Assembly: GCA_015709595.1 (NCBI GenBank)
Contig: CP054178.1
Coordinates: forward strand, 2,299,205-2,363,204
Length of the DNA: 64,000 bases
Direction of reading: 5' to 3'
From: Phycisphaeraceae bacterium
Lineage (GTDB): Bacteria; Planctomycetota; Phycisphaerae; Phycisphaerales; SM1A02
Position 1 is the stretch's first letter, and the number at the start of each line of letters is the position of its first letter. The notes under the pieces are model-generated. The model was not told the origin of the DNA and ran no database searches. It was given only the letters and a program-made list of their open reading frames with translations. Below are positions 7,469 to 26,412 of the stretch, piece by piece. Position numbers and translations under genes: made by a program.

Positions 7469-8344
7469 ATGTCGAGAAAACGACACGAGCCTTGTGTCCG
7501 CTGCCTCGGACTCACCCTCCCACCGGGCCACCGCATCGAGTTCCATGCCCACGATTGGCCGCAGCTCATCTACGCGGTTCGCGGCGTCATCTCGGTGACG
7601 ACGAGCGCCGGGGCGTGGGTTGTGCCGCCCATGCGTGCCCTTTGGGTGGCAGGGGGAGTTGAGCACGCACTCCACATGCAGGGGCGCGTCGAGATGCAGA
7701 CGCTCTACTTTCGACCCGATTTCGCACCAGTGATGGAGTCGGAGTGCTGCGTGATCAACATCTGGCCGCTCCTGCGTGAACTGATCGTTTCGATCGTTGC
7801 GGCGGGCGCCTTGAGCGATACAACGCCGAGCGATCGTGCGCGCTTGCGACTCCTGCTCGATCTGCTCGTCGTCGTCCCGAAACGCCCGCTCGCCCTGCCG
7901 ATGCCAATGGACCCCCGCGCCCGGAGGGTCGCCGAAAGGGTGCTCGATCGCGTCGGCGCCCCGGGTTCATTGGCCGATCTGGCACGGACGAGCGGCGCAA
8001 GCGCCCGTACCATCGAGCGGGCCTTTCTTGACCAGACCGGCATGACCTTCGGACGCTGGCGCCAGCGGGCACGCCTTCTGGAGGCGATCAGGCTGCTCGG
8101 TGAGGGAACGCAGGTGACGGCTGTGGCCATGAGCGTTGGCTACCGGAGCCCGAGCGCCTTCGTGGCGGCGTTCAAGAAATGCCTTGGGAGAACTCCAGCG
8201 CAGTATTTCCGCCTCGAGGAAGCATCGCCTGTCGAATCAGTAAGGGAACCGGCAGAAACTGCGGGCGCTCTGTCCGCGCCACGGCGGGGCCGTCGATCGA
8301 CCTTGCCGGGATCCGTGAACCGTCTCGTGGGGGATAGAGGGTGA
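7469..8344 (+). CDS. AraC-family transcriptional regulator
   Basis: A 291-aa regulator. The N-terminal half is a cupin-like sensor (HRIEFHAHDWPQLIYAVRG, HxH ligand-type motif). The C-terminal third carries two helix-turn-helix units (SLADLARTSGASARTIERAF and VTAVAMSVGYRSPSAFVAAF, then GRTPAQYFR), the AraC signature. It is divergent from the VOC/lipoprotein pair, with an 80-bp shared promoter gap. The inducer is unknown. A Pro/Arg-rich tail after the HTH seems nonconserved. Confidence 0.93.
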   Translation: MSRKRHEPCVRCLGLTLPPGHRIEFHAHDWPQLIYAVRGVISVTTSAGAWVVPPMRALWVAGGVEHALHMQGRVEMQTLYFRPDFAPVMESECCVINIWPLLRELIVSIVAAGALSDTTPSDRARLRLLLDLLVVVPKRPLALPMPMDPRARRVAERVLDRVGAPGSLADLARTSGASARTIERAFLDQTGMTFGRWRQRARLLEAIRLLGEGTQVTAVAMSVGYRSPSAFVAAFKKCLGRTPAQYFRLEEASPVESVREPAETAGALSAPRRGRRSTLPGSVNRLVGDRG

Positions 8345-11163
8345 GGCTTGGAGCGGGAGAAGGGCCGCGTCTCCCGTTCCATCAGCGTGGTCGGTCTGTG
8401 AAGTTCAGTGACAGGAAACTGGACGCGCGGGCGATTCTGCCCGGTGTCCATCCATCAGGGCCGCGTCGGCCTCCGCGGCAAGCCCGATCTTCACCGTGAC
8501 TTGCGGCGCGTTATTGGTGTCCATCCATCAGGGCCGCGTCGGCCTCCGCGGCGGCCAGCGTGCCGGGCGTGGCCTCGATCGAGGCCGCGAGTGTCCATCC
8601 ATCAGGGCCGCGTCGGCCTCCGCGGCCCGCCGACGCATACGAGCGCGTGTGCGCCGCTCTCGAGTGTCCATCCATCAGGGCCGCGTCGGCCTCCGCGGCT
8701 CGTGCAGGAATCCTCGCGGATCTCCCTGAAGGAGTTGTGTCCATCCATCAGGGCCGCGTCGGCCTCCGCGGCCCGGTTTTCACACCCCGCGGGCCAGCAG
8801 ATGCCAAGTGTCCATCCATCAGGGCCGCGTCGGTCGGCCTCCGCGGCGGCGAGATCAGCGCAGCTCGATGCGCTGATGGTGTGTCCATCCATCAGGGCCG
8901 CGTCGGCCTCTCTGGCGGCCATGCCGCGCACGACGAAACCTCGGCGTCAGCAGCTGTGTCCATCCATCAGGGCCGCGTCGGCCTCCGCGGCCCGGATCGG
9001 AGCGAGCCCGCCTGCACCCACCTCGTGTCCATCCATCAGGGCCGCGTCGGCCTCCGCGGCCTGTCAAGCATGTGTCGCATTTCAATCCATCTCCTGTGTC
9101 CATCCATCAGGGCCGCGTCGGCCTCCGCGGCGTTGGAGTACCGCTGCCATCAGGGCGTGAAGGCGCGGTGTCCATCCATCAGGGCCGCGTCGGCCTCCGC
9201 GGCCGCGACCATCGCGCGATGCCAACGTCGATCGAGGTGTCCATCCATCAGGGCCGCGTCGGCCTCCGCGGCGAGTGCGGCCCGTGTGGTGGCCAGCTAC
9301 AACCGGATGCGGTGTCCATCCATCAGGGCCGCGTCGGCCTCCGCGGCGGTGTTGGTGTCGTAGGTCTTGGTCCCGACGACGATGTGTCCATCCATCAGGG
9401 CCGCGTCGGCCTCCGCGGCCTCACTCACGGGGCCGCGTGCGTTCGATCAGGAGTGCATCGGTGTCCATCCATCAGGGCCGCGTCGGCCTCCGCGGCGGGT
9501 CGATTACACAGAGGAGCATCAGCCGATTGTCCGGGTGTCCATCCATCAGGGCCGCGTCGGCCTCCGCGGCCGTAACGCAACTCGCGTTACTTCATTCAGG
9601 AGAAAGTGTCCATCCATCAGGGCCGCGTCGGCCTCCGCGGCCGCGCCCCAGATCTTGAACAGCCCGCCGCCCTGTCGTGTCCATCCATCAGGGCCGCGTC
9701 GGCCTCCGCGGCCGCCCGACCACGCTGGCGGATGTCGGGCCAGCCGTGTCCATCCATCAGGGCCGCGTCGGCCTCTCCGCGGCGGGTCCGAAGTTTCACG
9801 CGGTCGAAGATCATCGACATCGTGTCCATCCATCAGGGCCGCGTCGGCCTCCGCGGCGCTCTGCACCGCGGCCAATCATCCCACGATGGAGGTGTGTCCA
9901 TCCATCAGGGCCGCGTCGGCCTCCGCGGCTGGCAGCGACCGGGAAGGAACAGGACATGGACTTCGAGTGTCCATCCATCAGGGCCGCGTCGGCCTCCGCG
10001 GCCAGCCGCGACCAGTTCAAGCCGCTCGAGGAGGCCCGGTGTCCATCCATCAGGGCCGCGTCGGCCTCCGCGGCGATCCGCGGGAGGCCGGCTCCAAGGA
10101 GACGGGCCTGTGTCCATCCATCAGGGCCGCGTCGGCCTCCGCGGCGGGCACGTACTACGAGCAGCTGACGGAGCGCGAGCAGGTGTCCATCCATCAGGGC
10201 CGCGTCGGCCTCCGCGCGCATCCCGCGCGGCTCAAGAACGCGACCGCCGCAGTGTCCATCCATCAGGGCCGCGTCGGCCTCCGCGGCAAGGCATCGAGCC
10301 CCGACACCGCGGGAGGCGGAGGTGTCCATCCATCAGGGCCGCGTCGGCCTCCGCGGCACTCGCCGAGACGCGCCGCCAACTCACCGACACGATGTGTCCA
10401 TCCATCAGGGCCGCGTCGGCCTCCGCGGCTTGAAGTCGAAGTCTTGCTCACCAGCTCCCTCAAAGTGTCCATCCATCAGGGCCGCGTCGGCCTCCGCGGC
10501 CCCGATGTCGATCGCGGTGGCGCCCAGGTTGTGGTGTCCATCCATCAGGGCCGCGTCGGCCTCCGCGGCCCGTCGCCATCGGACAGCATCACGCACGCCA
10601 GACAGTGTCCATCCATCAGGGCCGCGTCGGCCTCCGCGGCCAACGCGCGAAGGCGAATCGATCATCCACGCCGCGTGTCCATCCATCAGGGCCGCGTCGG
10701 CCTCCGCGGCCTGACGGCCGGGCATAGGAGTCGCCCAGGTTCACGTGTCCATCCATCAGGGCCGCGTCGGCCTCCGCGGCCGGACTTGCCGCGGCCGCGG
10801 GCCACGCCGCGGATGTGTCCATCCATCAGGGCCGCGTCGGCCTCCGCGGCTCTCGATGGTCATGTCGCATTGCTCCTAGACTCGAGTGTCCATCCATCAG
10901 GGCCGCGTCGGCCTCCGCGGCGGTCACCCTTCTTGCACCAGCAGCGCAAGTGAGCCATGTGTCCATCCATCAGGGCCGCGTCGGCCTCCGCGGCAATGCC
11001 GGCGGGGCACATCATCTACGTCGGCGTCAAGTGTCCATCCATCAGGGCCGCGTCGGCCTCCGCGGCATCGATCCCACCCATATTGTCTACGTCATGGTCA
11101 AGTGTCCATCCATCAGGGCCGCGTCGGCCTCCGCGGCCACGGAGACCCATGATGATCGTGCCG

Positions 11164-11522
11164 CGCCGCTCGGAGCCATCCATCAGGGCCGCGTCGGCGC
11201 TCCGCGGCCTGCTCGCAATGCGACCCGCTGGCGGCGCGCGACGGCGTGTCCATCCATCAGGGCCGCGTCGGCCTCCGCGGCCCCATGGGCTGCACGGCCA
11301 TCAACCTGACTGTCCATCCGCCATCAGGGCGTCCATCCATCGCAGGGCGGCGGGCCTGGCGGGCATCATCGGTCGGCCGTCCGCATCGTCGCGCTGCCAT
11401 CGTCAGGGCCATCCATCGGGCGCGCGTCGGCCTGCGCGGCCCAGGGCCCGAAGAGGTCACCACGCCTGACGGCCATACGCCGGCATCATCCATCCATCAG
11501 GCGCGTCGGCCTCCGCGGCCTG
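11164..11522 (-). repeat. Degenerate segment inside the CRISPR array
   Basis: Five consecutive units lose the regular repeat: fragments such as TGTCCATCCGCCATCAGGG and CCATCCATCGGGCGCGCG carry insertions, deletions and shuffled pieces, before the perfect repeat resumes at 11554. Smaller damaged units occur around 11780-11880, 14211, 15139 and 15633. Either real decay or consensus error in the assembly could explain this. Confidence 0.85.
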
Positions 11523-14500
11523 CTGTGGATCACCCGTGTGAGCGTCCTCAAGCGTGTCCATCCATCAGGGCCGCGTCGGCCTCCGCGGCGAAGAGGAGAT
11601 CGACCTCGCCCCCGTCGGCCTGTGTCCATCCATCAGGGCCGCGTCGGCCTCCGCGGCCGGAAATGTCACCCCGGCCATGACGGCGATCTGCGGTGTCCAT
11701 CCATCAGGGCCGCGTCGGCCTCCGCGGCGCCGGTCGCGTCCTCGACCGTGGGGGTGGTGGTCCCGTGTCCATCCATCAGGGCCGCGTCGTTGGCGGGCTG
11801 GATCCAACCGCTACACGGTGACGGGCACACGCAGGTCCATCCATCAGGTGGCGCGTCGGCGGCGCGGCCCCTCACGGTGCGCCGCAACCAGCACCACTTC
11901 CACGGTGTCCATCCATCAGGGCCGCGTCGGCCTCCGCGGCACACTTGAGCAGGCCGTCGCCCTGTGGCGGGAAAGGTGTCCATCCATCAGGGCCGCGTCG
12001 GCCTCCGCGGCCACTGAGGGCCGGTCAAAGGCCCCATCCACCAGGTTGTGTCCATCCATCAGGGCCGCGTCGGCCTCCGCGGCGACCACGACGTATGGCA
12101 TGTTCAAGGCGGAGATCATGTGTCCATCCATCAGGGCCGCGTCGGCCTCCGCGGCGCGCGGAGCGGAGAGTCACCCACGCCGAGCGTTCTTGTGTCCATC
12201 CATCAGGGCCGCGTCGGCCTCCGCGGCGTCGCACAATCACCGCGCGCGTCGATCCCTCCCACGGGTGTCCATCCATCAGGGCCGCGTCGGCCTCCGCAGC
12301 GGCGGCAGTTCCAGCAGGGGCCGTTCAAGTGCATCGAGTGTCCATCCATCAGGGCCGCGTCGGCCTCCGCGGCAGGCCGCCACGTCAGTGCCCAGGGCCG
12401 CACTGGCCCCGTGTCCATCCATCAGGGCCGCGTCGGCCTCCGCGGCTACGTTGTCCTGCGGCGACGAATCAACTGCTCAAGTGTCCATCCATCAGGGCCG
12501 CGTCGGCCTCCGCTGCGCGCATCGGGAGAGAGTCGATCACGTCGATCGGCTCAAGTGTCCATCCATCAGGGCCGCGTCGGCCTCCGCGGCGGCGACGATG
12601 AACTCGTGATCTCGATCGATTGATCCATGTGTCCATCCATCAGGGCCGCGTCGGCCTCCGCGGCGTCACGCCCGCCGCGTTGGCCGCCTCGAGGTTGGCC
12701 GAGTGTCCATCCATCAGGGCCGCGTCGGCCTCCGCGGCCGATCGAGGTCCTCGCGCTTCGACGAGTCACCACAGTGTCCATCCATCAGGGCCGCGTCGGC
12801 CTCCGCGGCGCTGGATGAATCTGGACTTCCTTTACAGATCCTGTGTCCATCCATCAGGGCCGCGTCGGCCTCCGCGGCATCATGTCTTCCGCCCGGACCG
12901 GAACCGACTTCGGGTGTCCATCCATCAGGGCAGCGTCGGCCAGCCATCGGCGAGGGTGATGGCAGTCGGGCGTGCGGCGACATCGCAGGAGGTGTCCATC
13001 CATCAGGGCCGCGTCGGCCTCCGCGGCCTGTGCGACACCGGGACGGGCCGTGGCGGGCCGATGTGTCCATCCATCAGGGCCGCGTCGGCCTCCGCGGCCG
13101 GATCGAAGCCGCGGCCCGCGAAGAGGAACGGCTCGTGTCCATCCATCAGGGCCGCGTCGGCCTCCGCGGCAAGTCCTCGCCGCCCACCCACGCGCCCCAC
13201 TGCTTGTGTCCATCCATCAGGGCCGCGTCGGCCTCCGCGGCGATCACAGTCAACACCACGCATCAGTTGCGAGAAGGGTGTCCATCCATCAGGGCCGCGT
13301 CGGCCTCCGCGGCTTCTTCGGTCCGGCCTCTACGGACGAGTCGATCTTGTGTCCATCCATCAGGGCCGCGTCGGCCTCCGCGGCGGCCGATGCGCTGGCG
13401 GGCCGGGCCGACCTGGACTAGTGTCCATCCATCAGGGCCGCGTCGGCCTCCGCGGCCCGTAATCTCTCGCATCGACGACCATCCGTCACCGGGTGTCCAT
13501 CCATCAGGGCCGCGTCGGCCTCCGCGGCATCGGGCTGGTCGGGGTCGACGTCGTCTCTCATGAGACGTGTCCATCCATCAGGGCCGCGTCGGCCTCCGCG
13601 GCAACGTTCCGTCCGCCGCTGCCGCCCGTCAGATCTGGTGTCCATCCATCAGGGCCGCGTCGGCCTCCGCGGCGGAACGCAACACCGAGGCGCTTCACGA
13701 GCAAGCGGAGTGTCCATCCATCAGGGCCGCGTCGGCCTCCGCGGCAAGGCCGAGCGTGCGATGAACCGTCTGATCCAGCGGTGTCCATCCATCAGGGCCG
13801 CGTCGGCCTCCGCGGCCCGCGCCGACAGCGAACAGGAGGATCGCCGGGTAGTGTCCATCCATCAGGGCCGCGTCGGCCTCCGCGGCGGTCCAGCGGATCG
13901 GTGCCGGGAGGCGTCTACGGAGTGTCCATCCATCAGGGCCGCGTCGGCCTCCGCGGCCAGTTCACAACGGGAGTACGCACATGAGTCGCAAGTGTCCATC
14001 CATCAGGGCCGCGTCGGCCTCCGCGGCGTAGATGGTGCCGCAGTCCAGAGCACCGTCGCTTCGGTGTCCATCCATCAGGTGCGCGTCGGCCTCCGCGGCG
14101 ATACCTGACGCGCGACGGGGTCGCGACCATTGTGTCCATCCATCAGGGCCGCGTCGGCCTCCGCGGCACGCAGCGAACCGTCTCCGGGTTCGCCAGCTTG
14201 CTGCACGCTCGTCATCCATCCATCAGGGGGCGTCGGCCCGCGGCCGAGGGAGTCGTGGCGTACTACAAGACGCCACCCGAGTGTCCATCCATCAGGGCCG
14301 CGTCGGCCTCCGCGGCCAACGCCCGCCTGGTGATCCCCGAGCAGCTGCTCGCGTGTCCATCCATCAGGGCCGCGTCGGCCTCCGCGGCGGCCTGAGACTC
14401 CGATGATCGCCATCCCAGTTCATCCGTGTCCATCCATCAGGGCCGCGTCGGCCTCCGCGGCCGTGCCGCTTGCCGATGGCGACCTGTGCGTACTCCCACT

Positions 14501-16426
14501 GTGTCCATCCATCAGGGCCGCGTCGGCCTCCGCGGCGGCGACCGCTTGGGGCTGTGCGAGTCCCGCGTGTCGGTGTCCATCCATCAGGGCCGCGTCGGCC
14601 TCCGCGGCAAGCGACGGTGGACGCCGCGCTCGCCAGTGCCGCGTGTCCATCCATCAGGGCCGCGTCGGCCTCCGCGGCAACACGACAGGAGCAGAACATG
14701 ATTCCCGATGTGTACGTGTCCATCCATCAGGGCCGCGTCGGCCTCCGCGGCTCGCCGCCGAACTGCTCGCCGTGCGGGACACGCTGCCGTGTCCATCCAT
14801 CAGGGCCGCGTCGGCCTCCGCGGCTGCTGAACGCACCGATACCGCGCGTGGCAGTCGAGTGTCCATCCATCAGGGCCGCGTCGGCCTCCGCGGCCGTCAT
14901 TCCCGGTCAAGGACTGACTCGGCATCAGTGTCCATCCATCAGGGCCGCGTCGGCCTCCGCGGCCAGCGCCGTCTCCGGTTCGCCAGCAGCCCGCGGTGTC
15001 CATCCATCAGGGCCGCGTCGGCCTCCGCGGCACCGGCACACGATGCAGTTCTACGCCCCGGCCTGGTGTCCATCCATCAGGGCCGCGTCGGCCTCCGCGG
15101 CCATCTGCGTTTGGGGTTGTCCCGGTCGGTCTTCGGGTCCATCATCCATCAGGGGCCGCGTCGGCCTCCGCGGCCGCCGACATCCTGCAGATATGCCGGC
15201 ATCTCGTCGTCCATCCATCAGGGCCGCGTCGGCCTCCGCGGCGCGACGCTCGATCCGACGGCCGGGCTCGCGGGAATGTGTCCATCCATCAGGGCCGCGT
15301 CGGCCTCCGCGGCGGTCGCCCGCCTCGTCCGCGCGGCGGCGGCACAACGGTGTCCATCCATCAGGGCCGCGGCGGCCTCCGCGGCGCGCGCGTTTCGCGC
15401 TTCACACACAACTCACGGGTGTCCATCCATCAGGGCCGCGTCGGCCTCCGCGGCCTGACATGCGGGCGATTGGCGGGGTCGGACTGCAGGTGTCCATCCA
15501 TCAGGGCCGCGTCGGCCTCCGCGGCAAGTTGGGGGGTGACGGTGGATCGACCACTAGATGTTGTGTCCATCCATCAGGGCCGCGTCGGCCTCCGCGGCTC
15601 GATCGGCTGGATCGAGTTGAAGCAGGTGGAGGAGTGTCCATCCATCAGGCCAGTCGGCCTCCGCGGCGCGGACGGCCTGAGACGGATCGCCATCCCAGTT
15701 CATCCGTGTCCATCCATCAGGGCCGCGTCGGCCTCGCGGCTCGCGTGCTGAAGGAAGACGTGCTGGACCTGCCGCCCAGTGTCCATCCATCAGGGCCGCG
15801 TCGGCCTCCGCGGCTGGCCGTGGTCTGGTTCGCGGCAGTTGCGGCCCCGGTCGGTGTCCATCCATCAGGGCCGCGTCGGCCTCCGCGGCAGACGGGCCGC
15901 CACATTCTTCGCACGACTGAAGTCGTGTCCATCCATCAGGGCCGCGTCGGCCTCCGCGGCCAGCGTCGCGTGCATCCTCGCGAGCGAGGGCGACGCGTGT
16001 CCATCCATCAGGGCCGCGTCGGCCTCCGCGGCCCCCAGCGCGGGCGAGGAGTTGCAGGGCAAGACCCGTGTCCATCCATCAGGGCCGCGTCGGCCTCCGC
16101 GGCGACAGGTGAAACACCCCGGAAACACCGAACGGCCCGTGTCCATCCATCAGGGCCGCGTCGGCCTCCGCGGCGGAGCCGTCAGCCATCAGCTGTCAGC
16201 TCTCAGCACGAGTGTCCATCCATCAGGGCCGCGTCGGCCTCCGCGGCGGCGAACTCGTGGTGATGGAGCACCGAATGGCGTCTTCGTGTCCATCCATCAG
16301 GGCCGCGTCGGCCTCCGCGGCACTTACTTACTCAGGAAATGGGGTGAAGTGTGTGTGGTGTCCATCCATCAGGGCCGCGTCGGCCTCCGCGGCAGCGGTG
16401 GCAGCGCATCGTGATCAAGGGTCCGT

Positions 16427-16610
16427 GTGTCCATCCATCAGGGCCGCGCCTCGCGGCGCAGGCGGTCCGTCCATCAGGCGCCGGAACGCGCCATGTCGGC
16501 GGTGTCCATCCATCAGGAACGCGTCGGCGCTCCGCGGCGGATCCATCAGGCCGCGATGCGACGTTCTCGGCGTGTCCATCCATCAGGGCCGCGTCGGCCT
16601 CCGCGCGCGA
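16427..16610 (-). repeat. Degenerate leader-proximal repeats
   Basis: Next to the leader end, four or five repeat copies are truncated or rearranged (for example the unit at 16427 lacks part of its centre, and partial ATCCATCAGG copies occur near 16475 and 16541). The spacer following this zone shares 33 identical nt with the spacer at about 16254-16286. Degeneration normally sits at the leader-distal end, so the location is unusual. Confidence 0.8.
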
Positions 16611-16689
16611 ACGCCACGCGACTCGTGGTGATGGAGCACCGAATGGCGTCTTCGTGTCCATCCATCAGGGCCGCGTCGGCCTCCGCGGC

Positions 16690-16899
16690 TGCCGCACTCG
16701 CAAACCCTTGAAAACAGGCCACTTGCGCGGCCTCTGGCGAGCATGAGCGATTTCGGAGCAGTCGAACGGTCATTTCTGGCACTCCGGACGCGGAAGAAAC
16801 CGCGAGAATCAGCCAAAAACCCGCGAGTGCGAGCGTGCCCGGCACCCCCCTTCACCACCGTCGCACTCGCGGCGAGGGGCCGCAGGAAGCCGACTTGTC
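16690..16899 (-). promoter_or_regulatory. Probable CRISPR leader
   Basis: This 210-bp stretch lies between the tracrRNA and the first repeat and holds no convincing gene. It contains three copies of a 9-nt motif in both orientations: CGCACTCGC at 16693-16701, GCGAGTGCG at 16823-16831 and CGCACTCGC at 16862-16870. These could form alternative hairpins or serve as protein sites for adaptation or transcription. The role is inferred from location only. Confidence 0.55.
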
Positions 16900-16930
16900 A
16901 AAGAACACCGGCCCGCCCTGCATCGGGCGG
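16900..16930 (-). terminator. Candidate tracrRNA terminator
   Basis: On minus, a perfect CCGCCC/GGGCGG stem (16925-16930 with 16913-16918, 6-nt loop) lies just after the tracrRNA anti-repeat and is followed within 10 nt by the T-rich TTCTTT (16900-16905). It is a weak Rho-independent-type signal, but well placed to end the tracrRNA. Confidence 0.45.
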
Positions 16931-17054
16931 CGGCAACGCGGTCCTGATTGATGCGCTCGGGACAAGCGGTTGCCCGCCTTCATCACTGAACACCCGGCGA
17001 GTTCCCCTCGGGCTGGGCCACAGGGGGCACGGGCTGAAGACACGTTCCCGAGAC
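16931..17054 (-). ncRNA. Predicted Cas12b tracrRNA
   Basis: Read on minus, the RNA would start near 17054. A 7-nt strand CTCGGGA (17046-17052) pairs perfectly with TCCCGAG (16956-16962). Directly after the first strand lies GTGTC (17039-17043), complementary to the crRNA repeat's terminal GACAC. Directly after the second strand lies CATCAATCAGGACCGCGT (16936-16953), pairing with 16 of 18 positions of the repeat's ACGCGGCCCTGATGGATG. This order (stem, short anti-repeat, internal hairpins, closing stem, long anti-repeat) is the known layout of the Alicyclobacillus Cas12b tracrRNA. Ends are approximate. Confidence 0.82.
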
Positions 17055-17060
17055 AAGCGC

Positions 17061-17089
17061 AGTATATCGGCCCGGGGACGCCCGCTCAA
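17061..17089 (-). promoter_or_regulatory. tracrRNA promoter overlapping cas12b stop
   Basis: On minus, TTGAGC (17084-17089) and TATACT (17061-17066) are separated by exactly 17 bp, a good sigma-70-like promoter in otherwise GC-rich DNA. The -35 element overlaps the TGA stop of cas12b (17086-17088). The start point expected 7 bp downstream, near 17054, lies just before the tracrRNA closing stem. Confidence 0.75.
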
Positions 17090-20000
17090 TCGTCGTCGTC
17101 GGACCCGAACCGCGAGGCGTTCGTGGCGTTGATCCCGGCCGCGCAGGCCCGGGCGACCGCGCCCCAGAAGACCTTGCCCTCGAACCAGCGGTCATTGGAG
17201 CGGAAGCCCCCGCTCGGGTCGCGGAACAGAATGCGCACGCCGCCGGACTCGTCATCATCTTCAATGTCGTCCGCCGGGGCAGGCGAGCCTGCAACCCCCT
17301 TGCGTCCTGCGGCAGTGCGTGTTCGTGAGCGGCCGCCGTCCCCATTGCCCCAATACGGCTCACGCTCCGACGCCTCCCCATCGCCAACCTGCACCAACAC
17401 CGTACCGGGGTCCACGTATCCAATACTCCTGGTGACCATGCCGTTCCCGCTGATCGTTGCGCGAATCCCGTCGATGCCGCGAAGGAACCGCAGGCCGACA
17501 TTCCCCGCTGCATTCTCATCCGCGTCAATGGGCGTGGAGTGAACGGGACACTTGGTGTTTGCGCAAACGAAGTGTGAGCCGCCATCACGAAGCACCCAAG
17601 GGCGGTCCTCTTCACGGTCGAAAGCGTGCGGATTCTTGTCGATCCCGGAACGTACCCTGTCAGCCACGCTCCGCATTGCCGCGTCACGGATGTCGTTGGA
17701 TTGGAGAACCCGTTGCATCCAAGTCTGGTTCAGCCACGCGGGATCGAATCGAACCGCGCGACAGCCCGGCGCGCCGCAGTGCGAGCAGTACCGTGACGAG
17801 AAGCGGGCATCCACGGTGGCGACCGGCACGCCGAACAGCCCGCCGATGTGCTGGGCAAACGCGAGAATCTGCCGGTGCGACCAACGGGCCAATCCGGCGT
17901 TCTCGTTCTTCGGACGGTCCGAACTCATCCTGTATCGGGTCAGGTCTTCGTAGACGAGAACATGTGCCGGGTCGTAGGCGGGGTGTGGATGCCGCGAGTC
18001 CTTGTCACCAAGACCGGCTGGCGCCGGGCATTGCACGCGAGCGTAGCCGTCTTCTCTGTAGAAGTGGCCTCGTTCTGGCCGGTGCCACAGAAGTTGGTCG
18101 GACCTGTCGGAGTATCGCCAGAGCCCGCGGCGAAGATCCTGCTCGAATCCGAGCGTCTGGGCCACGTCGGCATGTGCGATCAGCTTGGCGCGGTGTTCGC
18201 GGAGGTTGTCGAGGTGCTCGGTATCACCACGGTTGACTTTGGCGTCGCGTGGTACGCGGCGCACATCACCGGGCCAGCGCGGCCGGCAGGACCAGCGACG
18301 GACGAAGTTCTTCACGTCGTCGAGGAAGTTCAGGCGGTTCATCGACACGCCGCCGCGATGCGTGCGGCCGTGCGGCAGGTTGTTGGTGTCATCCTTGCGG
18401 TCGCCGTGCTTCGTGACAGGCGGCCGGCGCAGCAGGCGGAACAACCCGTTCTCGAACAGGTCGCGTTTGCCGCCATTGTCGCCGCGGTCGCCGTAGCTCA
18501 CCTCGCGCATCAGCGCGGCGTCGAACTCGTTCCAGAGGCCGGAAGTTGCCCGGCGGCACTTCTCGGCGTCGTACCCGTCGCACAGGGACTTGGCCAGCGG
18601 CATGCGGAGCTGGTGAACCCGCCCCGCGAACTCATCATCCTCTGCCTGGCGCTTCGTCTTGGCGGCATCGCGGTCGATGCCCTGTTTCTTGGCTTGCTTC
18701 TCGGTCGGCACCTCCGTCGTCGGCACCTTCTCAGCGAGCGCCTTGAGCGACGCATTGCGGTTGCCAAGCCAGTCCCATATCGAGCCCGTATGGCCGATCG
18801 CCTTCAGGGATTCGGTCATGGCGTCGGTGGATGCCCATCGCACCAGTTGCTCTGCCACCTTGCGGCAGTTCTCCTTGATCTCCGGCTCGTCGAGACTCCG
18901 TGTCTCCGTCTTCCACTTCGTCCCAATGCGTTTGGTGATGCCGTCGGCTCGCTTGCGAACCTTGGCGCCGTCGGGCTTCCGCTGGGTGATGGCCTCGAGC
19001 GCCAGAAGCCGGGTGATACGCAGGAGCGAGTTGTTCAGATTGAGACGGGTGCGGAGAGAATACAGCCGCTCACGCAGCGCCTGTTCTTCCGTGGGCAGCG
19101 CCTCGCCGTCGCCGGGGAGGGAGACCGCTGAGGTACGCTCAAGGACTGCGTAGACGGGTTTCCCCTCGCACTTGCCGACCTGCCACGCCGTTTTACCGTC
19201 GGGCTTGGTGAATGACAGCCGCCACAATGCGCCGGCTGACGATGTGCGATAGCCGAGGTCGGTTCCGCGAACAGTGAAGCCGTGATCGATGGCCTCCTTC
19301 GGCCACTGCCGTTGTCCTGGCGGTAGCCGTGTCCCTCCGTCCTCAGTGGCGCCGTCCTTGCTGATCGCCTTCTTCAGGAAGAATGCCCGTGTCATGCCGT
19401 CACGGGGCTTCTTGAGTTTCACGTCGGAACCCACGTGCTTCGTCAGCCAGTCGGGCAGTGCCGCCTCGCCGGCATCGCAACTGAAGTTTGCGTAAATGCG
19501 GGGCGACTTCTTCGTCGGCTGGCGCTTCTGATGGGATGCCTCAAGTTCATCGCGTTCCCAAGTCAGTTTCATGCCGCTGAGCGTCCCTTGGCGGGTCTGT
19601 CCGCCCAGGAGATCATCGCGGAACACGAGGGTCTGCTTGGCGGAAACGTCTCCCGCGTTATCCGGGAGAGCGAAGCTTCTCTCAAAGTCGTCGTAGCCGC
19701 GAAGTGCGATCTTCACGCGATCAACGGCCGAGTACGAACCGTCTGCCTGGCGTGCGAGCAGTTGCTTGAGAACCAGCACCAGGCGTGCGTCTCCGCTGGA
19801 CGTTTCTTCCCGCGTCAGCCAGTATTCAACGGCCGAGTTCTCGCCGAAAAAGGGCCAGACTGGATGCTTGACAGGATCAACCTGCGTCCAGGTGATTGAC
19901 TTCGGTTGGTCCGCAAGATGTTCGTTCTGGGCGATGAATGCCGTGAGGCAGTCGCGGTCCTCGCGGCCGCAGTCGTTGTCCTCGCCCTTATCCGCGCCAT

Positions 20001-21465
20001 CCCAGAGCCAGCGGCGTTCGGGAGACGCCAGCCACTCAAAGAGGCGTCGATCACCGAAGTCCCGTGTTTTCCGTGTCCGCATCTGGTCGAACGCTTCGAG
20101 CAGGTCGTCGGCCGATGGAGCTGGCTTGTCGGCCTTGCTCGCCTTGGCGATGAGATCATTCCACTTGTCACGAACCTTCGCCCACCCCTTGGCCGTTCGC
20201 CTCCGAATGCGGGGCTGCTCGGCGGCTCCGAACGCGACGGCTTCGAGATGCTTGGGCATCTCGTCAGTCTCGTACATGCGCAGGGCTTCGACCCATTTCC
20301 TGTTGGCATAGGCGTGCCGCTGATCGAAGTCGCCAGCCGCGCCGTCCGGCGGGGTATCGAACTGGATGTCGTCCGGCGTGAGGCCGTCCTTCCGGATGGA
20401 CTTGCCATCGCGCCTCGTGCGAATCCAGCCGCCACGCTCAAACAGCGTCGTTCGCAACTCCCACAGCATCCGCTCCGTCGCTCGACGGCGGACCCAACCC
20501 AGGTGGCTGCGTACCCGCTGACCGGCCATGTTCCACATGGCGTAGTTCCACTCCGCCGATCCATTGTCGATGTGGAGATATGCGCTCGGGCGCTGAAGGC
20601 CGGGAAGTGGGAGACAATCCATCTCCAAGAGTCGGCGATAGGCGGCGATGCTCCCACTCACGGCCGAATCTTCGACACGCTTTTCCGCCTTCGCCTTGTC
20701 AGCCTCCCAAGTGCTTGCATACTCACACAACTGTGCCTGAACGTCGTGCCACGCCCCTGTATATTTCTGCTTCAGTTGCCTGAGCAGGGATTTGCCGTCG
20801 TTTGCCGCGCTCTGAAACTCCTGAGTGGCAGTGATTCGAGTTTCAAAGTCGCTCCAGCTTGATGCGGAAGGTGCTGTGGCCGCGATCGCCTGCTTCAGCA
20901 TCCATCGCGGCCGGCGACCGCTCTTCTGCTTCGGCTTGCCTGTCTTGTCCACCCCGCGATCCCTGACTCCCTTCGCGGTTGACGTTTCGAGTGTCAACAG
21001 GTCCAAGTCGTCTCTCGGCATCTGGGCGCCGGAGGTGTCCTCGCTGGGTGGGCACAACTCCTTGGCGATGCGACGACAGCATTCGGCCAACTCGACGGCC
21101 TCGGCTTCAGACTTGCCCTTGCTCTTGAAAGCATCGAGAAGGTCGCGGTTCTCCAACAGCGCAAAGGAACTCGGATCGGCTGCGCGGCGTGACCTGGCCT
21201 TCTTGAGTTCGTCACAAGTCGTGATCTCCTGCCACTCGCGCCAGATGCCGTCCCGCTTCTCGCGCCAAACGCCGGTGCCGCGGTGCATCCGGAGCAGCCA
21301 GCCGGTGAGGTAATCGACGCCGGTGTTGAACGCTTCCCGCGTGTCATCAAGCCAGTGCTGGACCTGATTCGTTTCCTTTGTGCGATCGCTCTCGAAGCGC
21401 TGGCGATCAACCACGGGCTGCCCAGCCCGCAGTTCAAGCCGCAGTTTGTAGCTCTTCGTCGCCAC
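17086..21465 (-). CDS. cas12b: Cas12b (C2c1) CRISPR effector nuclease, long variant
   Basis: This is the RNA-guided effector of the type V-B system; the family uses crRNA plus tracrRNA and cuts both DNA strands with one RuvC site. Three RuvC motifs are present: GTDLGYRTS (Asp736), VLVYEDLTRYR (Glu1173) and DADENAAGN (Asp1316). Flanking signatures match Cas12b closely: DRPKNENAGLARWSHR after RuvC-II and RILFRDPSGGF near the C terminus. The N terminus (KSYKLRLEL) also fits. A putative zinc ribbon is formed by CSHC (Cys1227, Cys1230) and CANTKC (Cys1301, Cys1306). At 1459 codons it exceeds the usual 1100-1300. The start is GTG at 21465 after GAGGAG. It sits 91 bp after cas2. Confidence 0.96.
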   Translation of the reverse strand: MATKSYKLRLELRAGQPVVDRQRFESDRTKETNQVQHWLDDTREAFNTGVDYLTGWLLRMHRGTGVWREKRDGIWREWQEITTCDELKKARSRRAADPSSFALLENRDLLDAFKSKGKSEAEAVELAECCRRIAKELCPPSEDTSGAQMPRDDLDLLTLETSTAKGVRDRGVDKTGKPKQKSGRRPRWMLKQAIAATAPSASSWSDFETRITATQEFQSAANDGKSLLRQLKQKYTGAWHDVQAQLCEYASTWEADKAKAEKRVEDSAVSGSIAAYRRLLEMDCLPLPGLQRPSAYLHIDNGSAEWNYAMWNMAGQRVRSHLGWVRRRATERMLWELRTTLFERGGWIRTRRDGKSIRKDGLTPDDIQFDTPPDGAAGDFDQRHAYANRKWVEALRMYETDEMPKHLEAVAFGAAEQPRIRRRTAKGWAKVRDKWNDLIAKASKADKPAPSADDLLEAFDQMRTRKTRDFGDRRLFEWLASPERRWLWDGADKGEDNDCGREDRDCLTAFIAQNEHLADQPKSITWTQVDPVKHPVWPFFGENSAVEYWLTREETSSGDARLVLVLKQLLARQADGSYSAVDRVKIALRGYDDFERSFALPDNAGDVSAKQTLVFRDDLLGGQTRQGTLSGMKLTWERDELEASHQKRQPTKKSPRIYANFSCDAGEAALPDWLTKHVGSDVKLKKPRDGMTRAFFLKKAISKDGATEDGGTRLPPGQRQWPKEAIDHGFTVRGTDLGYRTSSAGALWRLSFTKPDGKTAWQVGKCEGKPVYAVLERTSAVSLPGDGEALPTEEQALRERLYSLRTRLNLNNSLLRITRLLALEAITQRKPDGAKVRKRADGITKRIGTKWKTETRSLDEPEIKENCRKVAEQLVRWASTDAMTESLKAIGHTGSIWDWLGNRNASLKALAEKVPTTEVPTEKQAKKQGIDRDAAKTKRQAEDDEFAGRVHQLRMPLAKSLCDGYDAEKCRRATSGLWNEFDAALMREVSYGDRGDNGGKRDLFENGLFRLLRRPPVTKHGDRKDDTNNLPHGRTHRGGVSMNRLNFLDDVKNFVRRWSCRPRWPGDVRRVPRDAKVNRGDTEHLDNLREHRAKLIAHADVAQTLGFEQDLRRGLWRYSDRSDQLLWHRPERGHFYREDGYARVQCPAPAGLGDKDSRHPHPAYDPAHVLVYEDLTRYRMSSDRPKNENAGLARWSHRQILAFAQHIGGLFGVPVATVDARFSSRYCSHCGAPGCRAVRFDPAWLNQTWMQRVLQSNDIRDAAMRSVADRVRSGIDKNPHAFDREEDRPWVLRDGGSHFVCANTKCPVHSTPIDADENAAGNVGLRFLRGIDGIRATISGNGMVTRSIGYVDPGTVLVQVGDGEASEREPYWGNGDGGRSRTRTAAGRKGVAGSPAPADDIEDDDESGGVRILFRDPSGGFRSNDRWFEGKVFWGAVARACAAGINATNASRFGSDDDD

Positions 21466-21556
21466 GATCTCCTCAGCGTCCTTCCGTCAGCGAGCGTCCG
21501 TTCATCCGAGCAACGGGTGCAGCGCGACCATGCCGGAAAGGATACCCGCATCGGGG

Positions 21557-21847
21557 TCAGATCACCACCATTCCGCTCTCCTGATCCGGCAAACTCTGCC
21601 CCAGGACGGTCGCCGACTCGCGGGCGGCGTCCTCGTTGCTGCCCAGGTCCACGATGAGGAGCTGGTCCTCTTTCAGGTTGAGGATCTCGCGGGCGGCGTT
21701 CTCCAGGCGGACGCGGTCGATGGCCTTGAGCGTGCAATAGAAGACGGAGTACTGCCACGGCTCGCCATACGCCTTCATCAGCTTGTGGATGCGGCGGAGG
21801 CGTTTGTCGTGCCGCACGTCGTAGCAGACGAGGTAGCAGCGGCGCAT
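21557..21847 (-). CDS. cas2: CRISPR adaptation protein Cas2
   Basis: A 96-aa Cas2: RRCYLVCYDVRHDKRLRRIH gives the first beta strand with the conserved Asp, followed by YGEPWQYSVFYCTL and EDQLLIVDLGS. Cas2 dimers bridge Cas1 dimers in the spacer-integration complex. The ATG at 21847 lies 4 bp after the cas4-cas1 stop, so the two are co-translated; cas12b follows in the same direction. Confidence 0.96.
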   Translation of the reverse strand: MRRCYLVCYDVRHDKRLRRIHKLMKAYGEPWQYSVFYCTLKAIDRVRLENAAREILNLKEDQLLIVDLGSNEDAARESATVLGQSLPDQESGMVVI

Positions 21848-21851
21848 GGCG

Positions 21852-23648
21852 TTACCTCGTGGTAAGGAAGGCGAGCGTCGGCACCTCGCCCAGGAGCCAG
21901 GCGGCGACGAGCCGGGCGTGCAGCATGAGCATCCGCCGATAGGACAGGCGGTACTCGAAGACGGGATGCCGGACCTCGGTGTCCATGCGGCGGCCATAGG
22001 CGGAGAAGAATCCCTTGCGGCCGGCGTCGGTCAGGGCGCAGCCGGCGGCGGTGTCGAGGAAATGGCCCTCGGTCAGTTCGCCACGGTTGAACGCCGAGAC
22101 GGCGATCGAGTCAGCGATCAGCGGCCGGAACGGCTCCATCAGGTCCAGCGCCAGCGCCGGGCGTCCGGGGCGCGTGGCGTGAAGCGCCCCGAGCGTCGGT
22201 TCCAGACTGGCGAGTCGCGCAGCGGCGGTACATTCGTGCGTCAGCATCGAATAGGCGAATGACAGCACGGCGTTGACGGGATCGGGCGGCGGGCGGCGTT
22301 TGCGGCCGTTGCTGTCGAAACGCGCGGCGATCTCCTTGACACCCTCCTTGAACATACCCGCGAAGTGGCGGAAGTAGATGGCGGCGGCGTTGCCTTCGTG
22401 GCCGCGGAGTTCGTCCAACGTAGTCGCGTGCTCGGCGGCGTTCACACTGTCCTGGAGGTCCGCCGCCACGCGCGACGGGAGCGCGGCGTGATTGCGCATA
22501 AGCAGCGTGCGCTGGTTGGCGATTTTGGCGACCGTGACGGCTCTGGCGAGTTCGAGGGCCTTGTCGGGCCGGTCGAGCGTCCTGATCTGCGCGGCGCGCA
22601 CGGCGGCGCTCGTCGGTCCCATCGGGTCCATCATGGCAACCAGCCGCCCGGCGGCGGTGAGGAACCCGACGGGAACCTCGTGGTCGGCGAAGACGGCGAG
22701 TGCCTGCGTCGAGACCTGCACGCCGCCGAGCACGGTGAGCGATTCGACGTTTGCCAGCGGCAGGTCGCGGACGACGCCGCCATCCTTGTCCGTGATTCGG
22801 ACGGACTGGCCGCGCACGCCGACGCGGACACCCTCCTTCTGGAGGACGACGTGGATGCCGTCGTCGCGCGGCGGCCAGAGTTTCCGCGGCGTGAGCTGCT
22901 CGTCGGCTGTCTCGCCGTTGATTGTGAGCGTCGTCAGACGCTGGTGATTGATCTCGTCAGGCAGGCAGATCGGCTGGAGCGAGCAGCGCGGGCACTTCGG
23001 ATCGTTCACCAGCGGCGGCGGGCGCTCTCCTGCCGCAGCGCGTTTCGCGGCCTCCAGTTCCGCGAGCGCCTCGCGTTTCAGTGCATCGTCAACCGGTATT
23101 CGGAGCTTCAACCGCTCGGCTGCGTAATAGAAGTACGCTTCGGGGACGGTGTACCCGGCTTCTTCCAGCAGGATTGCCTGGAGCCCGATCTGTACGCGGT
23201 CGGTGGGCCACGGCTCCGGACCGGGGAGCAGTCGCCCCTGCTCCATCATTTCATCCACGGGTTCGGCGACCTCGCCACAACGCTTCGGTCTGCCTTTGCG
23301 GTACTCGACGGGGATGGCGGTCGTGCCGTTGATCTCGGCCAAGTCGAGCTTGGCGGTCAGGCCCAGCCGGTCGCTGGTAAGCGCGAGGCTGCGGACGGAA
23401 CGCGGGCGATCCGGGTCGGTGTCAGATTGTTCCAGTTTCTCGGTCTTCTTCCTGCCGCGCCCGCTCTTCCCGTTGCCTTCTGGTGTTGGCGGGGCCTCGC
23501 TTGGCCGATCTACCCGGGTATGAACGCCGGCGCCCTGCTCGGTGTCGGCGCTGGGCAGAAAGACCCCCTCTACCGTCATGTAGTAGAACAGGCGCGGGCA
23601 ATAAGCATGCTCCGCCACGCCGCGACATGGCCAATGGGAGCCGTCCAT
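21852..23648 (-). CDS. cas4-cas1: Cas4-Cas1 fusion adaptation protein
   Basis: A 598-aa fusion typical of type V-B. The Cas4 nuclease part occupies about residues 1-235, with the first cluster Cys at 17 (AYCPRLFYY) and the C-terminal Cys219, Cys222 and Cys228 (CPRCSLQPIC), expected to bind an Fe-S cluster. The Cas1 integrase part follows from about residue 255 (VRVGVRGQSVRITDKDGG), with catalytic-type motifs RGHEGNAAAIYF, LTHECTAAARLASLEP and ALDLMEPFRPLIAD. Cas4 selects and trims PAM-containing prespacers and Cas1 integrates them. It heads the cas operon. No clear ribosome site precedes the ATG at 23648. Confidence 0.95.
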   Translation of the reverse strand: MDGSHWPCRGVAEHAYCPRLFYYMTVEGVFLPSADTEQGAGVHTRVDRPSEAPPTPEGNGKSGRGRKKTEKLEQSDTDPDRPRSVRSLALTSDRLGLTAKLDLAEINGTTAIPVEYRKGRPKRCGEVAEPVDEMMEQGRLLPGPEPWPTDRVQIGLQAILLEEAGYTVPEAYFYYAAERLKLRIPVDDALKREALAELEAAKRAAAGERPPPLVNDPKCPRCSLQPICLPDEINHQRLTTLTINGETADEQLTPRKLWPPRDDGIHVVLQKEGVRVGVRGQSVRITDKDGGVVRDLPLANVESLTVLGGVQVSTQALAVFADHEVPVGFLTAAGRLVAMMDPMGPTSAAVRAAQIRTLDRPDKALELARAVTVAKIANQRTLLMRNHAALPSRVAADLQDSVNAAEHATTLDELRGHEGNAAAIYFRHFAGMFKEGVKEIAARFDSNGRKRRPPPDPVNAVLSFAYSMLTHECTAAARLASLEPTLGALHATRPGRPALALDLMEPFRPLIADSIAVSAFNRGELTEGHFLDTAAGCALTDAGRKGFFSAYGRRMDTEVRHPVFEYRLSYRRMLMLHARLVAAWLLGEVPTLAFLTTR

Positions 23649-23859
23649 ATCGGAATCATCGGTTCCGTAGAGGACGCTCTTTTCGGTGTCTGCGGATGCG
23701 CGGGATAGAAAATACAGAAATCCGCCCGCATCGGTGCGGTTCTCGGACGCCGCGCCGCGGCGCTACCGTCCTGAGTCCCAGAACATCGAACTGCCCAACC
23801 CGTTATCTGCCAAGGACTTCAAGCCACGAACCGCTTGCGAGAAACTCGAAGTCAGGACA

Positions 23860-26412
23860 CTACTTCTCGTAGGGTCCAAGAAACCGCTCGCCGTTGAAGT
23901 GGATCAGGTGGGTTGGCGCATCGGCGACCCAGACTTCCGTTTCCCATGCGATGTCAGGCAGGTACTCGCGCATCGCCTGACGGTCCAGGAAGGCGGTGAC
24001 GAACACGAGTCCGGCCTTGGAGCCGGCGAACAAATCCTTGAGTTGCGTGTGCCGGAGCATGTTCACCGGGCCGTGTGATGTGACGGCCTCGACGAGCACA
24101 AGCCAGTTGCGGTCCTTGTAGTGGATCACCACGTCGGGCATCTTGCCGTGTCGGTCGATGACGACGCCGAGCTTCTTGAGGTACGCCTCGTCATAGACCA
24201 GATGCTTGTCACCGGCGTCGCCGACGTACACCAGGTGGCCGCCCGGCGTGAAGCGCGGCGCGAACTGCTCGATGATTTCCTTGATGAGGACGTTCTGTCC
24301 GCCGGCCGACAAGTGGAGCGTCTGGCCCGTCGGCAGCGTGACCGGAATCTGCGACATCTGACGGGCTGCCTCGCGCAGCCGGTTCTTCCCCTCCATCGAA
24401 TCCAGATACTCGGAGAGGTTCTTGTGCCAGTCGTCGGTGCCGAAGGTGCGCAGGAGTTCCAGCGCCGACGGTTCGACCTGGTAAACGTTCTTCGGGCTGT
24501 TGGTGGGGCGCTGCGGATCATCCGGATTGAGCAGCACAAACCCCATCTCCACGAACTGGTGGAGCGTGAAGCGGCGAATCGTCTCGCGGGTGTTGGGCGC
24601 GTACTTCTTGCCGTACTTGGCGGCCATCCAGTCCATCAGTTCCGTGACGCCGCGAAGCGGGTTGCCGGCCTTCGACCAAGGAGCGGTGGGTTCGAGATCG
24701 ACCAAGGCAAGCAGCGTCAGCGCCGAGCGCTCGTTGACCTGCCCCTTGGGCGCTTTGAGGGCTTTCAGCACGTCGAGGGCGGACTCGACCTTGGTCTTGT
24801 TCGCAATGGGGTCGTCGCCTTCGCTCATGCTCGGAATCTCCTCTCGTATCAATCGGTTGATCTCGTCGGTGGACGGCATCCGGCCGTTCACGTGACGGCC
24901 CAAGCGCTCCAGCGTCTCCCGGTCTGGGAAACGCAGCGAGCGGAGGTCGCGCGCGTTGACCTGCGTGTGGCCGCTGAACTGCCGGAAGTAGGCGTCCACC
25001 GCCGTTCCGTTGAGGAACAGCGCCAGGCCCTTGGCCAATGCCGGCGGCAAGCCGTGGTGGTCTTGATGGATGACGTTGAGTTTATTGTCGAAGGCGACAG
25101 GACTGCGCGGCAGTCGGTTCGGATCGCACAGCGCGGCTACGACACGGCGCTTCTCCTCCTTGGCGCTGAACCGCTTGACCAGCACGTACCAGCCGCGCGG
25201 CAGCAAGTCGGGATCTTCGTCGCCACGAACGTGAATCGCGTTGGGCTTGTCGCGAAGGTCGCGCGGCCACTCGACGAAGCCCTCCGGTGACAGGTGCCTG
25301 GGGAAGATGAGCGGCGCGTCTCCGTTGCTTGCTTTGGCGCGCAACCGATCCCGCGCGCGGAAGTCCACGACGCGACCGGTGGAGACGGCAATCTCCAACT
25401 CGGCAAGTGTGTATGGCAGCCGCCGCATTGCGTCGCCGATTTGAGCATCCGTCTCGTCGGGCACGACGTGCATGACCATGTCAGAGTCGGTCGGCGACAC
25501 GAACTGTTCGGGCGTCAGCGTCTGCGATGCCATGCCGTCGTCGCCAGGGCCGTGCGACGTGGTGACGAGAATCGGCGTCGGCTCACCGCCGCGCACGGCA
25601 TGAATGATTGCGTTCTCCTGGAGCACGTCGTCCTGGTTGAACGCCGCCTGGCGTGAGTCGTAAACATGCACGCGGTGGAATGCCATGCGATTGACGAGTG
25701 CCCGGCGGAACGGTCGGAAGTACGAGCCGTTCATGTAGCTGCGCGGCGTGATGGCGACGAGCTCGCCTTGGTCGGCCAGCAATTCAACCGTCAGCCATAC
25801 GAACGCCGCATAGAGATTACTCGTCTCGATGCCGGCGGCGCGCAGCCGCAATCGCTCCTCGCTGTCGCTGCGGAGCTTGCGGTACGGCGGATTGAGAATC
25901 GCCGCGTCGAATTGCGGTGCGTCGCCGGCGAACAAGCGGTTGGCGCCGACCATGTCGGCAGCTTCCAGGATAAAGTCGCCGTGGCGAAGGTCGGCGGTGA
26001 ACGCGACTCCTTCTCTGCGGCACGCTGCCTCGCACAGCCGAAGTGTGCCCTCCAAGGACGGGATGAGCGCGTCGTCCAGTTCCCATACCGTGGCGCTGAT
26101 GCGTTCCGGGCGCGCCGCTCGTCGTGAGCACAACTCGGCGACCGCCGCCGCCGTGAGCATTCCGTTGCCGCCGCCGGCGTCGAGCAGGCGCAGTGTCTTG
26201 GGCATCCGGGGAAACGCGAACAGCGACGCCATGAATCTGGCAACCGACTCCGGTGTAAAGAACTGCCCGAGTTTGGCTCGTCTCGCTTGGTCGTCGGCGA
26301 GTCTGGCTGACACGTCAAGGCGCAGCAGGTCGATGCGATCGAGCAGCGCGGCCGCGGTTACGGCGTGTTCCACGGTCGGCGTGTAAATCTGCGTCGATGC
26401 GGTCCGAGCCAC
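23860..26412 (-). CDS. Fused adenine methyltransferase and BsuBI/PstI-type restriction endonuclease
   Basis: One uninterrupted 850-codon frame. The first 528 or so residues form an Eco57I/BsuBI-like N6-adenine methyltransferase (LGQFFTPESVARFMASLF, LDAGGGNGMLTAA SAM motif, NPPY at 174-177). The remainder, beginning near an internal Met at 24828, matches the BsuBI/PstI endonuclease: NERSALTLLALVDL, YAPNTRETIRRFTLHQF, NSPKNVYQ, MPDVVIHY with VEAVTSHGP, and WETEVWVADAPTHLIHFNG. That family recognises CTGCAG; specificity here is unproven. The GTG start at 26412 has an exact AGGAGG six bases upstream. In the usual systems the two genes are separate. Internal re-initiation at 24828 could yield a free nuclease. 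Confidence 0.92.
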   Translation of the reverse strand: MARTASTQIYTPTVEHAVTAAALLDRIDLLRLDVSARLADDQARRAKLGQFFTPESVARFMASLFAFPRMPKTLRLLDAGGGNGMLTAAAVAELCSRRAARPERISATVWELDDALIPSLEGTLRLCEAACRREGVAFTADLRHGDFILEAADMVGANRLFAGDAPQFDAAILNPPYRKLRSDSEERLRLRAAGIETSNLYAAFVWLTVELLADQGELVAITPRSYMNGSYFRPFRRALVNRMAFHRVHVYDSRQAAFNQDDVLQENAIIHAVRGGEPTPILVTTSHGPGDDGMASQTLTPEQFVSPTDSDMVMHVVPDETDAQIGDAMRRLPYTLAELEIAVSTGRVVDFRARDRLRAKASNGDAPLIFPRHLSPEGFVEWPRDLRDKPNAIHVRGDEDPDLLPRGWYVLVKRFSAKEEKRRVVAALCDPNRLPRSPVAFDNKLNVIHQDHHGLPPALAKGLALFLNGTAVDAYFRQFSGHTQVNARDLRSLRFPDRETLERLGRHVNGRMPSTDEINRLIREEIPSMSEGDDPIANKTKVESALDVLKALKAPKGQVNERSALTLLALVDLEPTAPWSKAGNPLRGVTELMDWMAAKYGKKYAPNTRETIRRFTLHQFVEMGFVLLNPDDPQRPTNSPKNVYQVEPSALELLRTFGTDDWHKNLSEYLDSMEGKNRLREAARQMSQIPVTLPTGQTLHLSAGGQNVLIKEIIEQFAPRFTPGGHLVYVGDAGDKHLVYDEAYLKKLGVVIDRHGKMPDVVIHYKDRNWLVLVEAVTSHGPVNMLRHTQLKDLFAGSKAGLVFVTAFLDRQAMREYLPDIAWETEVWVADAPTHLIHFNGERFLGPYEK

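What the first reader, a model, noticed from the sequence alone, without database searches (positions are those of the whole stretch)
10995..11101. Two adjacent spacers encode the same peptide pattern
The spacers after the repeats at 10959 and 11032 read, in the same phase, ...GHIIYVGVK and ...THIVYVMVK. The DNA differs at many positions but the amino acids agree, and both end at the same codon position. This implies homologous genes of two different invaders were sampled at the same site, consistent with one PAM position or primed-like acquisition.
Basis: partly seen in the sequence, partly recalled or inferred. Interest (0 to 1): 0.6.

Follow-up and report, generated by a model that had tools for sequence, protein, structure and literature searches.

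The report
Two similar neighbouring CRISPR spacers
Two neighbouring entries in a bacterium's CRISPR memory array look alike at one end, as if the same spot in two related invaders had been recorded, but no matching invader was found, so the resemblance may still be chance.

Summary
The spacers are real neighbours in a long type V-B (Cas12b) array: S1 10995-11030 (36 nt), S2 11067-11101 (35 nt). In the stated phase they read MPAGHIIYVGV(K) and IDPTHIVYVMV(K); the K codons borrow their last base from the repeat. Aligned at their + strand 3' end they agree at 17 of 23 bases: third of 5995 spacer pairs after two near-duplicate pairs, first among adjacent pairs. In DNA of the host and three related genomes that score has P about 2e-5 per pair, so about 0.002 is expected among 104 adjacent pairs and 0.11 among 5778 pairs. 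The peptide likeness alone is not unusual (about 0.06 and 3 expected), and without anchoring it ranks 68 of 6216. Both spacers score best in the same coding frame. No protospacer was found in the searches made of phages, plasmids, viral contigs, genome contigs, the own genome and phylum relatives; several used only patterns. Gene, invader and PAM stay unknown. Sampling of homologous sites in two invaders is my slight favourite; chance is a strong rival. Priming has no support here and was not seen in type V-B (PMC9419969).

The parts
8444..16689 (-). CRISPR array with 36-nt repeat GTGTCCATCCATCAGGGCCGCGTCGGCCTCCGCGGC (+ strand); 113 repeat positions with at most 14 mismatches. The minus strand as crRNA strand is an inference.
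   Evidence: promoter-like and terminator-like sites on the minus strand at 17089-16819; the anti-repeat does not settle the strand
10959..10994 (.). repeat before S1
   Evidence: exact copy
10995..11030 (+). spacer S1, 36 nt; best-scoring coding frame reads MPAGHIIYVGV(K)
11031..11066 (.). repeat between S1 and S2 (starts at 11031, not 11032)
   Evidence: exact copy
11067..11101 (+). spacer S2, 35 nt; best-scoring coding frame reads IDPTHIVYVMV(K)
11102..11137 (.). repeat after S2
   Evidence: exact copy
16927..16953 (-). weak anti-repeat-like stretch, possible tracrRNA region between array and cas12b
   Evidence: alignment score 29 against 28 for a stretch near 22790 inside the cas4-cas1 gene; duplex energy within the range of 400 random controls; no Rfam match in 8000-24000
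17086..21465 (-). Cas12b, 1459 aa
   Evidence: NCBIfam NF033949 497.1 bits, cut-off 150; Pfam C2c1 domains; PADLOC Cas12b
21557..21850 (-). Cas2
   Evidence: Pfam PF09827 61.6 bits; TIGR01573 37.8 bits
21852..23648 (-). Cas4-Cas1 fusion, 598 aa
   Evidence: NF049935 cas4g_cas1g 619.9 bits, cut-off 560; Pfam Cas1 and Cas4

Best explanation
S1 and S2 are two independently acquired spacers of a type V-B (Cas12b, Cas4-Cas1, Cas2) array. They were most likely taken from the same position in homologous genes of two related but diverged invaders. The Cas4-Cas1/Cas2 machinery picks fragments next to a fixed motif, so a conserved motif in two relatives gives spacers that begin at the same base and share the adjacent bases. 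Shown: the spacers, the array and cas genes, the end-anchored likeness. Inferred: the common gene, two invaders, the shared PAM, and the crRNA strand (minus, which would make the shared end the PAM-proximal seed end).
For: 17/23 and 13/16 identity at the shared end: above every pair but two near-duplicate pairs, first of 104 adjacent pairs, while the best pair aligned at the other end reaches only 14/23. P about 2e-5 per pair in DNA of the host and three related genomes, 3.5e-5 when fragments pass a crude PAM filter. Both spacers have their best coding score in the same phase and strand. The array does sample invader genes: one spacer matches an integrated element at 37/37 and another at 35/37, and one matches two methylase-like genes of the own genome at 31/35 and 30/35.
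Against: No protospacer or homologous gene was found. The peptide likeness alone is about what chance gives. The excess depends on choosing the 3' end and a window near 16-23 bases (over 30 bases an unrelated-looking pair scores higher), so a look-elsewhere correction of several-fold applies. The DNA-level motif HI[IV]YVxV[KN] occurs in 0 of 399 other genomes of the order and 3 of 391 others of a phylum sample, no clear excess over the reversed control pattern (1 and 2 hits). S1 scores higher, as a peptide, against the neighbouring restriction gene (38) than against S2 (29).
Confidence: 0.5

Rival explanations
1. Chance: two unrelated GC-rich coding fragments, each covering a short beta-strand-like stretch, happen to share bases at one end.
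For: Peptide score 27 is expected about 3 times among 5778 end-anchored pairs, and 3 of 3828 were seen; rank 68 of 6216 without anchoring; no homologous gene found.
Against: The anchored nucleotide identity stands clear of the other non-duplicate pairs over 23 and 16 bases (next best 15/23 and 11/16) and falls on neighbours.
Confidence: 0.4
2. Primed-like or feedback updating: S1 partly recognised a diverged relative of the first invader and triggered acquisition of S2 at the same site.
For: Adjacency, and a shared end that would be the seed end if the array is transcribed from the minus strand (inference).
Against: No evidence of priming was seen experimentally for type V-A or V-B (PMC9419969, section 13). 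The authors expected priming to enrich spacers from the target, possibly close to the old site. No protospacers to test here.
Confidence: 0.05
3. One spacer is a decayed duplicate of the other within the array.
For: The array does hold imperfect duplicates: spacers at 14389 and 15670, and at 16248 and 16608.
Against: Those duplicates keep 21 and 33 identical bases and differ by insertions or deletions. S1 and S2 differ at 15 of 35 aligned bases without a gap, while the flanking repeats are perfect copies.
Confidence: 0.02
4. S1 comes from a BsuBI/PstI-type restriction gene carried by an invader, like the gene at 23860-27042, and S2 is unrelated.
For: S1's best match in the window, by DNA (24/36, next 23) and by peptide (TPGGHLVYVGDA, 38, next 32), lies in frame in that gene; among 542 kb of other fetched DNA only one pattern-selected locus reached 34 or more.
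Against: The residue after YxG is D in that gene and in the four relatives where the motif could be read (5 of 8 loci looked at, own gene included), but V in S1. Found after the fact.
Confidence: 0.02
5. The true coding frame is on the other strand (DADVDDV / DHDVDNM), or the shared stretch is non-coding.
For: The reverse frame is open in both and also similar.
Against: Codon scores favour the forward frame in both: 4.5 against 1.6 and 4.6 against 2.0 bits.
Confidence: 0.01

Closest known systems
Type V-B CRISPR-Cas (Cas12b with Cas4-Cas1 fusion and Cas2), as studied in Alicyclobacillus acidoterrestris (PMC9419969)
   Same: Same gene set: Cas12b, Cas4/1 fusion, Cas2 and an array of repeats and spacers.
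   Different: Cas12b here is 1459 aa and the array is long (113 repeat positions); two self-matching protospacers lack the TTN flank reported for that system.
Primed adaptation (named for types I-B, I-E, I-F and II-A in PMC9419969)
   Same: Two similar targets recorded next to each other could look like updating of a memory.
   Different: No protospacers and no mapped cluster here, and no evidence of priming for type V-B in the study consulted.

Membership tests
Type V-B CRISPR-Cas | Cas12b effector | tested here: met
   NF033949 497.1 bits, cut-off 150
Type V-B CRISPR-Cas | Cas4-Cas1 fusion and Cas2 | tested here: met
   NF049935 619.9 bits against cut-off 560; PF09827 61.6 bits against 23.8
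Type V-B CRISPR-Cas | repeat-spacer array beside the cas genes | tested here: met
   8444-16689
Type V-B CRISPR-Cas | tracrRNA with anti-repeat | tested here: inconclusive
   weak anti-repeat at 16927-16953, no better than chance by duplex energy; no Rfam hit
Type V-B CRISPR-Cas | 5' TTN-type PAM | tested here: inconclusive
   two protospacers in the own genome have CTC and GTC in the presumed position; they may be tolerated because the PAM is absent, or the PAM or strand differs
Spacers from homologous sites of two invaders | both protospacers identified, aligned and sharing a PAM | tested here: inconclusive
   searched, none found
Primed adaptation | acquisition stimulated by an existing partly matching spacer | not testable with these tools
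   needs an acquisition assay
GIY-YIG nuclease as the sampled gene | spacer motif followed by the YIG half of the domain in a protospacer-bearing gene | tested here: inconclusive
   4 viral contigs fit a pattern joining both halves (HIVYVIVNNVTG.RYVG), one of them scanned and a GIY-YIG domain by Pfam; none carries either spacer's sequence
BsuBI/PstI restriction nuclease as the source of S1 | YxGD motif | tested here: not met
   D in 5 of the 5 loci where the motif was read, of 8 looked at; V in S1

The most novel reading that the evidence does not exclude
A type V-B system updated its memory at the same site: recognition of a diverged relative by the older spacer led to capture of the homologous protospacer next to it, a feedback that the one type V study consulted looked for and did not see.
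Probability: 0.05. Interest if true: 0.6.

Novelty: new member of a known kind. Interest (0 to 1): 0.2.

Why it matters
If protospacers of both spacers are found at the same position of homologous genes, the pair would be a natural example of repeated sampling of a conserved motif by a type V-B system and a lead for testing feedback in class 2 adaptation. As it stands it is an ordinary array with one statistically suggestive pair.

Tried and rejected
Exact 3' parts of S1 and S2 in viral contigs: one hit for S1, 26/36 overall, in a hydrophobic stretch of a short open frame (ALIIYVGVNELV), judged chance; none for S2. Blastn of S1 in phages: 21 records (20 listed), none covering 80% of S1, E of 1 or worse; in plasmids: 3 records, two covering 89-92% at 86-88% identity, E 0.1-0.3. 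S2 in phages: none. S2 alone was not run against plasmids; the whole array was. Of these hits I opened three: H21 lies outside any listed gene (the plasmid gene table is incomplete), H22 at the end of a small gene on the other strand, H14 in a small gene on the other strand. Peptide patterns in viral contigs: HI[IV]YVxV[KN] with TAC for Y gave 30 loci with no common family that I could see (one, a GIY-YIG protein, was scanned); PAGHIIYV gave one locus where the match goes on as RWQIV; DPTHIVYV none. One genome-contig scan with a codon-restricted pattern gave one archaeal locus (its ATPase look is my own reading, no call made it). Scans of the two peptides with their repeat-coded flanks gave nothing in PHROGs or Pfam.

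BsuBI/PstI idea: see the rivals; the D that follows YxG is absent from S1. GIY-YIG idea: a lead only; my first pattern was mis-spaced by one base and was repeated correctly. P-loop ATPase idea: a scan of L045:7001-20000 gave one hit, on the minus strand.

Array against phages: 202 records, 30 shown, best E 0.06 among those; plasmids none at E 0.01. A relative of the element's 275-aa protein was sought in viral contigs: none. Dropped before counts: one search kept 88 spacers (repeats with at most 3 mismatches, 28-42 nt). One search kept 108 of 112 (30-42 nt), which left out one near-duplicate pair (16248/16608); one search put two of the four back. In one search long spacers were cut to 47 nt and only same-strand pairs were compared.

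Full report
What is there. The window lies in a 3.84 Mb single-contig bacterial genome. A CRISPR array runs from 8444 to 16689 with a 36-nt repeat; 113 repeat positions have at most 14 mismatches, and several stretches hold degenerate repeats. Beside it, on the minus strand, lie Cas12b (17086-21465, 1459 aa), Cas2 and a Cas4-Cas1 fusion. This is type V-B. S1 is 10995-11030 and S2 is 11067-11101; the repeats before, between and after them are perfect copies.

The observation. Ungapped DNA identity is 20 of 35 overall. At the 3' end it is 17 of 23, 13 of 16 and 18 of 30. Codon scores from four genes of the window put this frame first in both spacers.

Is it chance? I compared every pair of the 108 spacers of 30-42 nt, aligned at the 3' end. 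Over 23 and 16 bases the pair is second of 5778; with two longer spacers added it is third of 5995; the pairs above it are near-duplicates. It is first of 104 adjacent pairs. Over 30 bases it is third and fourth, an unrelated-looking pair (10146/11208) scoring 19. The best pair aligned at the 5' end reaches 14 of 23. Fragments drawn from the host's DNA and three related genomes reach 17/23 with probability about 2e-5 (79 of 4,000,000 pairings, fragments re-used; 4 of 400,000 in a first run), or 3.5e-5 with a crude PAM filter. That is about 0.002 to 0.004 expected among 104 neighbours and 0.11 to 0.2 among 5778 pairs. The peptide score is weaker: probability 5.6e-4, so 0.06 expected among neighbours and about 3 among all; 3 of 3828 pairs of the 88 spacers reached it. 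With any frame and offset on the same relative strand the pair is 68th of 6216; 77 pairs reach its score, this one being the only adjacent one. When the order of spacers is shuffled, some adjacent pair reaches the nucleotide threshold in 4% of shuffles, a near-duplicate pair included.

Where does it come from? Not found. An exact-pattern search and one allowing 2 mismatches find the motif in the own genome only in the two spacers. Phages and plasmids gave nothing convincing. Viral-contig scans by exact parts and by peptide patterns gave one chance hit, 30 loci without a common family that I could see, and one more locus. Of 399 other genomes of the order none carries HI[IV]YVxV[KN] at the DNA level; of 391 others in a phylum sample that partly overlaps the first, three do. 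The reversed control pattern hit once and twice, so three is no clear excess. Two of the three lie in open frames of 255 and 590 codons, one in 62; none was scanned for families. A blastn of the S1-repeat-S2 stretch against 392 genomes gave a capped list; the rows shown lie mostly on the repeat, two mainly in S1 with 20 to 31 bases at E 0.0025 to 0.0029, which I judge chance.

S1 and the restriction gene next door. S1's best match in the window is in frame in the BsuBI/PstI-type gene at 23860-27042, peptide score 38 against 29 for S1 and S2. That gene and four relatives from the order have D after YxG (5 of the 8 loci could be read), S1 has V, so I do not take it as the source.

What the array does target. 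One spacer (15526-15562) matches the own chromosome at 37/37, at the 3' end of an integrase gene near 3254118, and another (10146-10182) at 35/37 about 7 kb away. Of the element's frames that I scanned, only the integrase gave a match over its cut-off; one had a sub-threshold TAL-repeat hit, and some likely genes were not scanned. The flanks in the presumed PAM position are CTC and GTC, not TTN. PMC9419969 (abstract, passages and section 13 read) gives NTTN as the interference PAM of the A. acidoterrestris system and ATTN for acquisition, so these self-matches may be tolerated for lack of a PAM; or this system's PAM or strand differs. A third spacer (12739-12773) matches two methylase-like genes at 31/35 and 30/35 (the label is my reading of the sequence, not a family search).

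Strand. A promoter-like site at 17089-17061 and two terminator-like sites, all on the minus strand, lie between cas12b and the array, which suggests minus-strand transcription. The anti-repeat found nearby is no better than chance. If the minus strand is right, the shared end of S1 and S2 is the PAM-proximal end; this is an inference.

Mechanism. The simplest account that uses the excess is naive acquisition by Cas4-Cas1/Cas2 from the same site of homologous genes in two related invaders. Priming is not needed, and PMC9419969 reports no evidence of primed adaptation for type V-A or V-B. Chance remains nearly as likely. Three paper searches for adjacent spacers with homologous targets listed two papers each, none on this topic by title and start of abstract; that is a statement about those searches only.

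Verdict.

Noticed in passing
window 15526-15562 and 10146-10182; own genome 3254118 and 3247386: Two spacers match an integrated element in the same genome at 37/37 and 35/37; the perfect match lies at the 3' end of its integrase. Presumed PAM flanks are GTC and CTC, not TTN.
   Followed up: partly
own genome about 3243000-3254200 (L045); L077: Element of about 10 kb with an integrase and otherwise unrecognised proteins among those scanned. A 275-aa protein has relatives in 4 of 200 other genomes of the order; a 10.8-kb contig (L077) shows, by eye, a similar gene order. It reminds me of tailless icosahedral phages (recalled, not tested).
   Followed up: partly
window 14389-14425 / 15670-15705 and 16248-16285 / 16608-16653: Near-duplicate spacer pairs that keep 21 and 33 identical bases and differ by insertions or deletions at the other end.
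   Followed up: partly
window 11172-11520, 11765-11868, 14200-14240, 15102-15242, 15634-15741, 16427-16607: Islands of degenerate or scrambled repeats inside an otherwise mostly perfect array; decay, rearrangement or assembly error.
   Followed up: no
window 12739-12773; L048, L049: Spacer matching two methylase-like genes of the own genome at 31/35 and 30/35, which looks like sampling of a conserved gene.
   Followed up: partly
window 23860-27042: Fused restriction-modification gene (methylase plus BsuBI/PstI-type nuclease) directly beside the cas genes; S1's best match in the window (24/36) lies in it. Family found in 7 of 200 other genomes of the order.
   Followed up: partly
window 12447-12480 and 12517-12554: Another adjacent spacer pair with the same last six bases (GCTCAA). 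Two of 104 adjacent pairs share 5 or more end bases where 0.14 were expected from all pairs.
   Followed up: no
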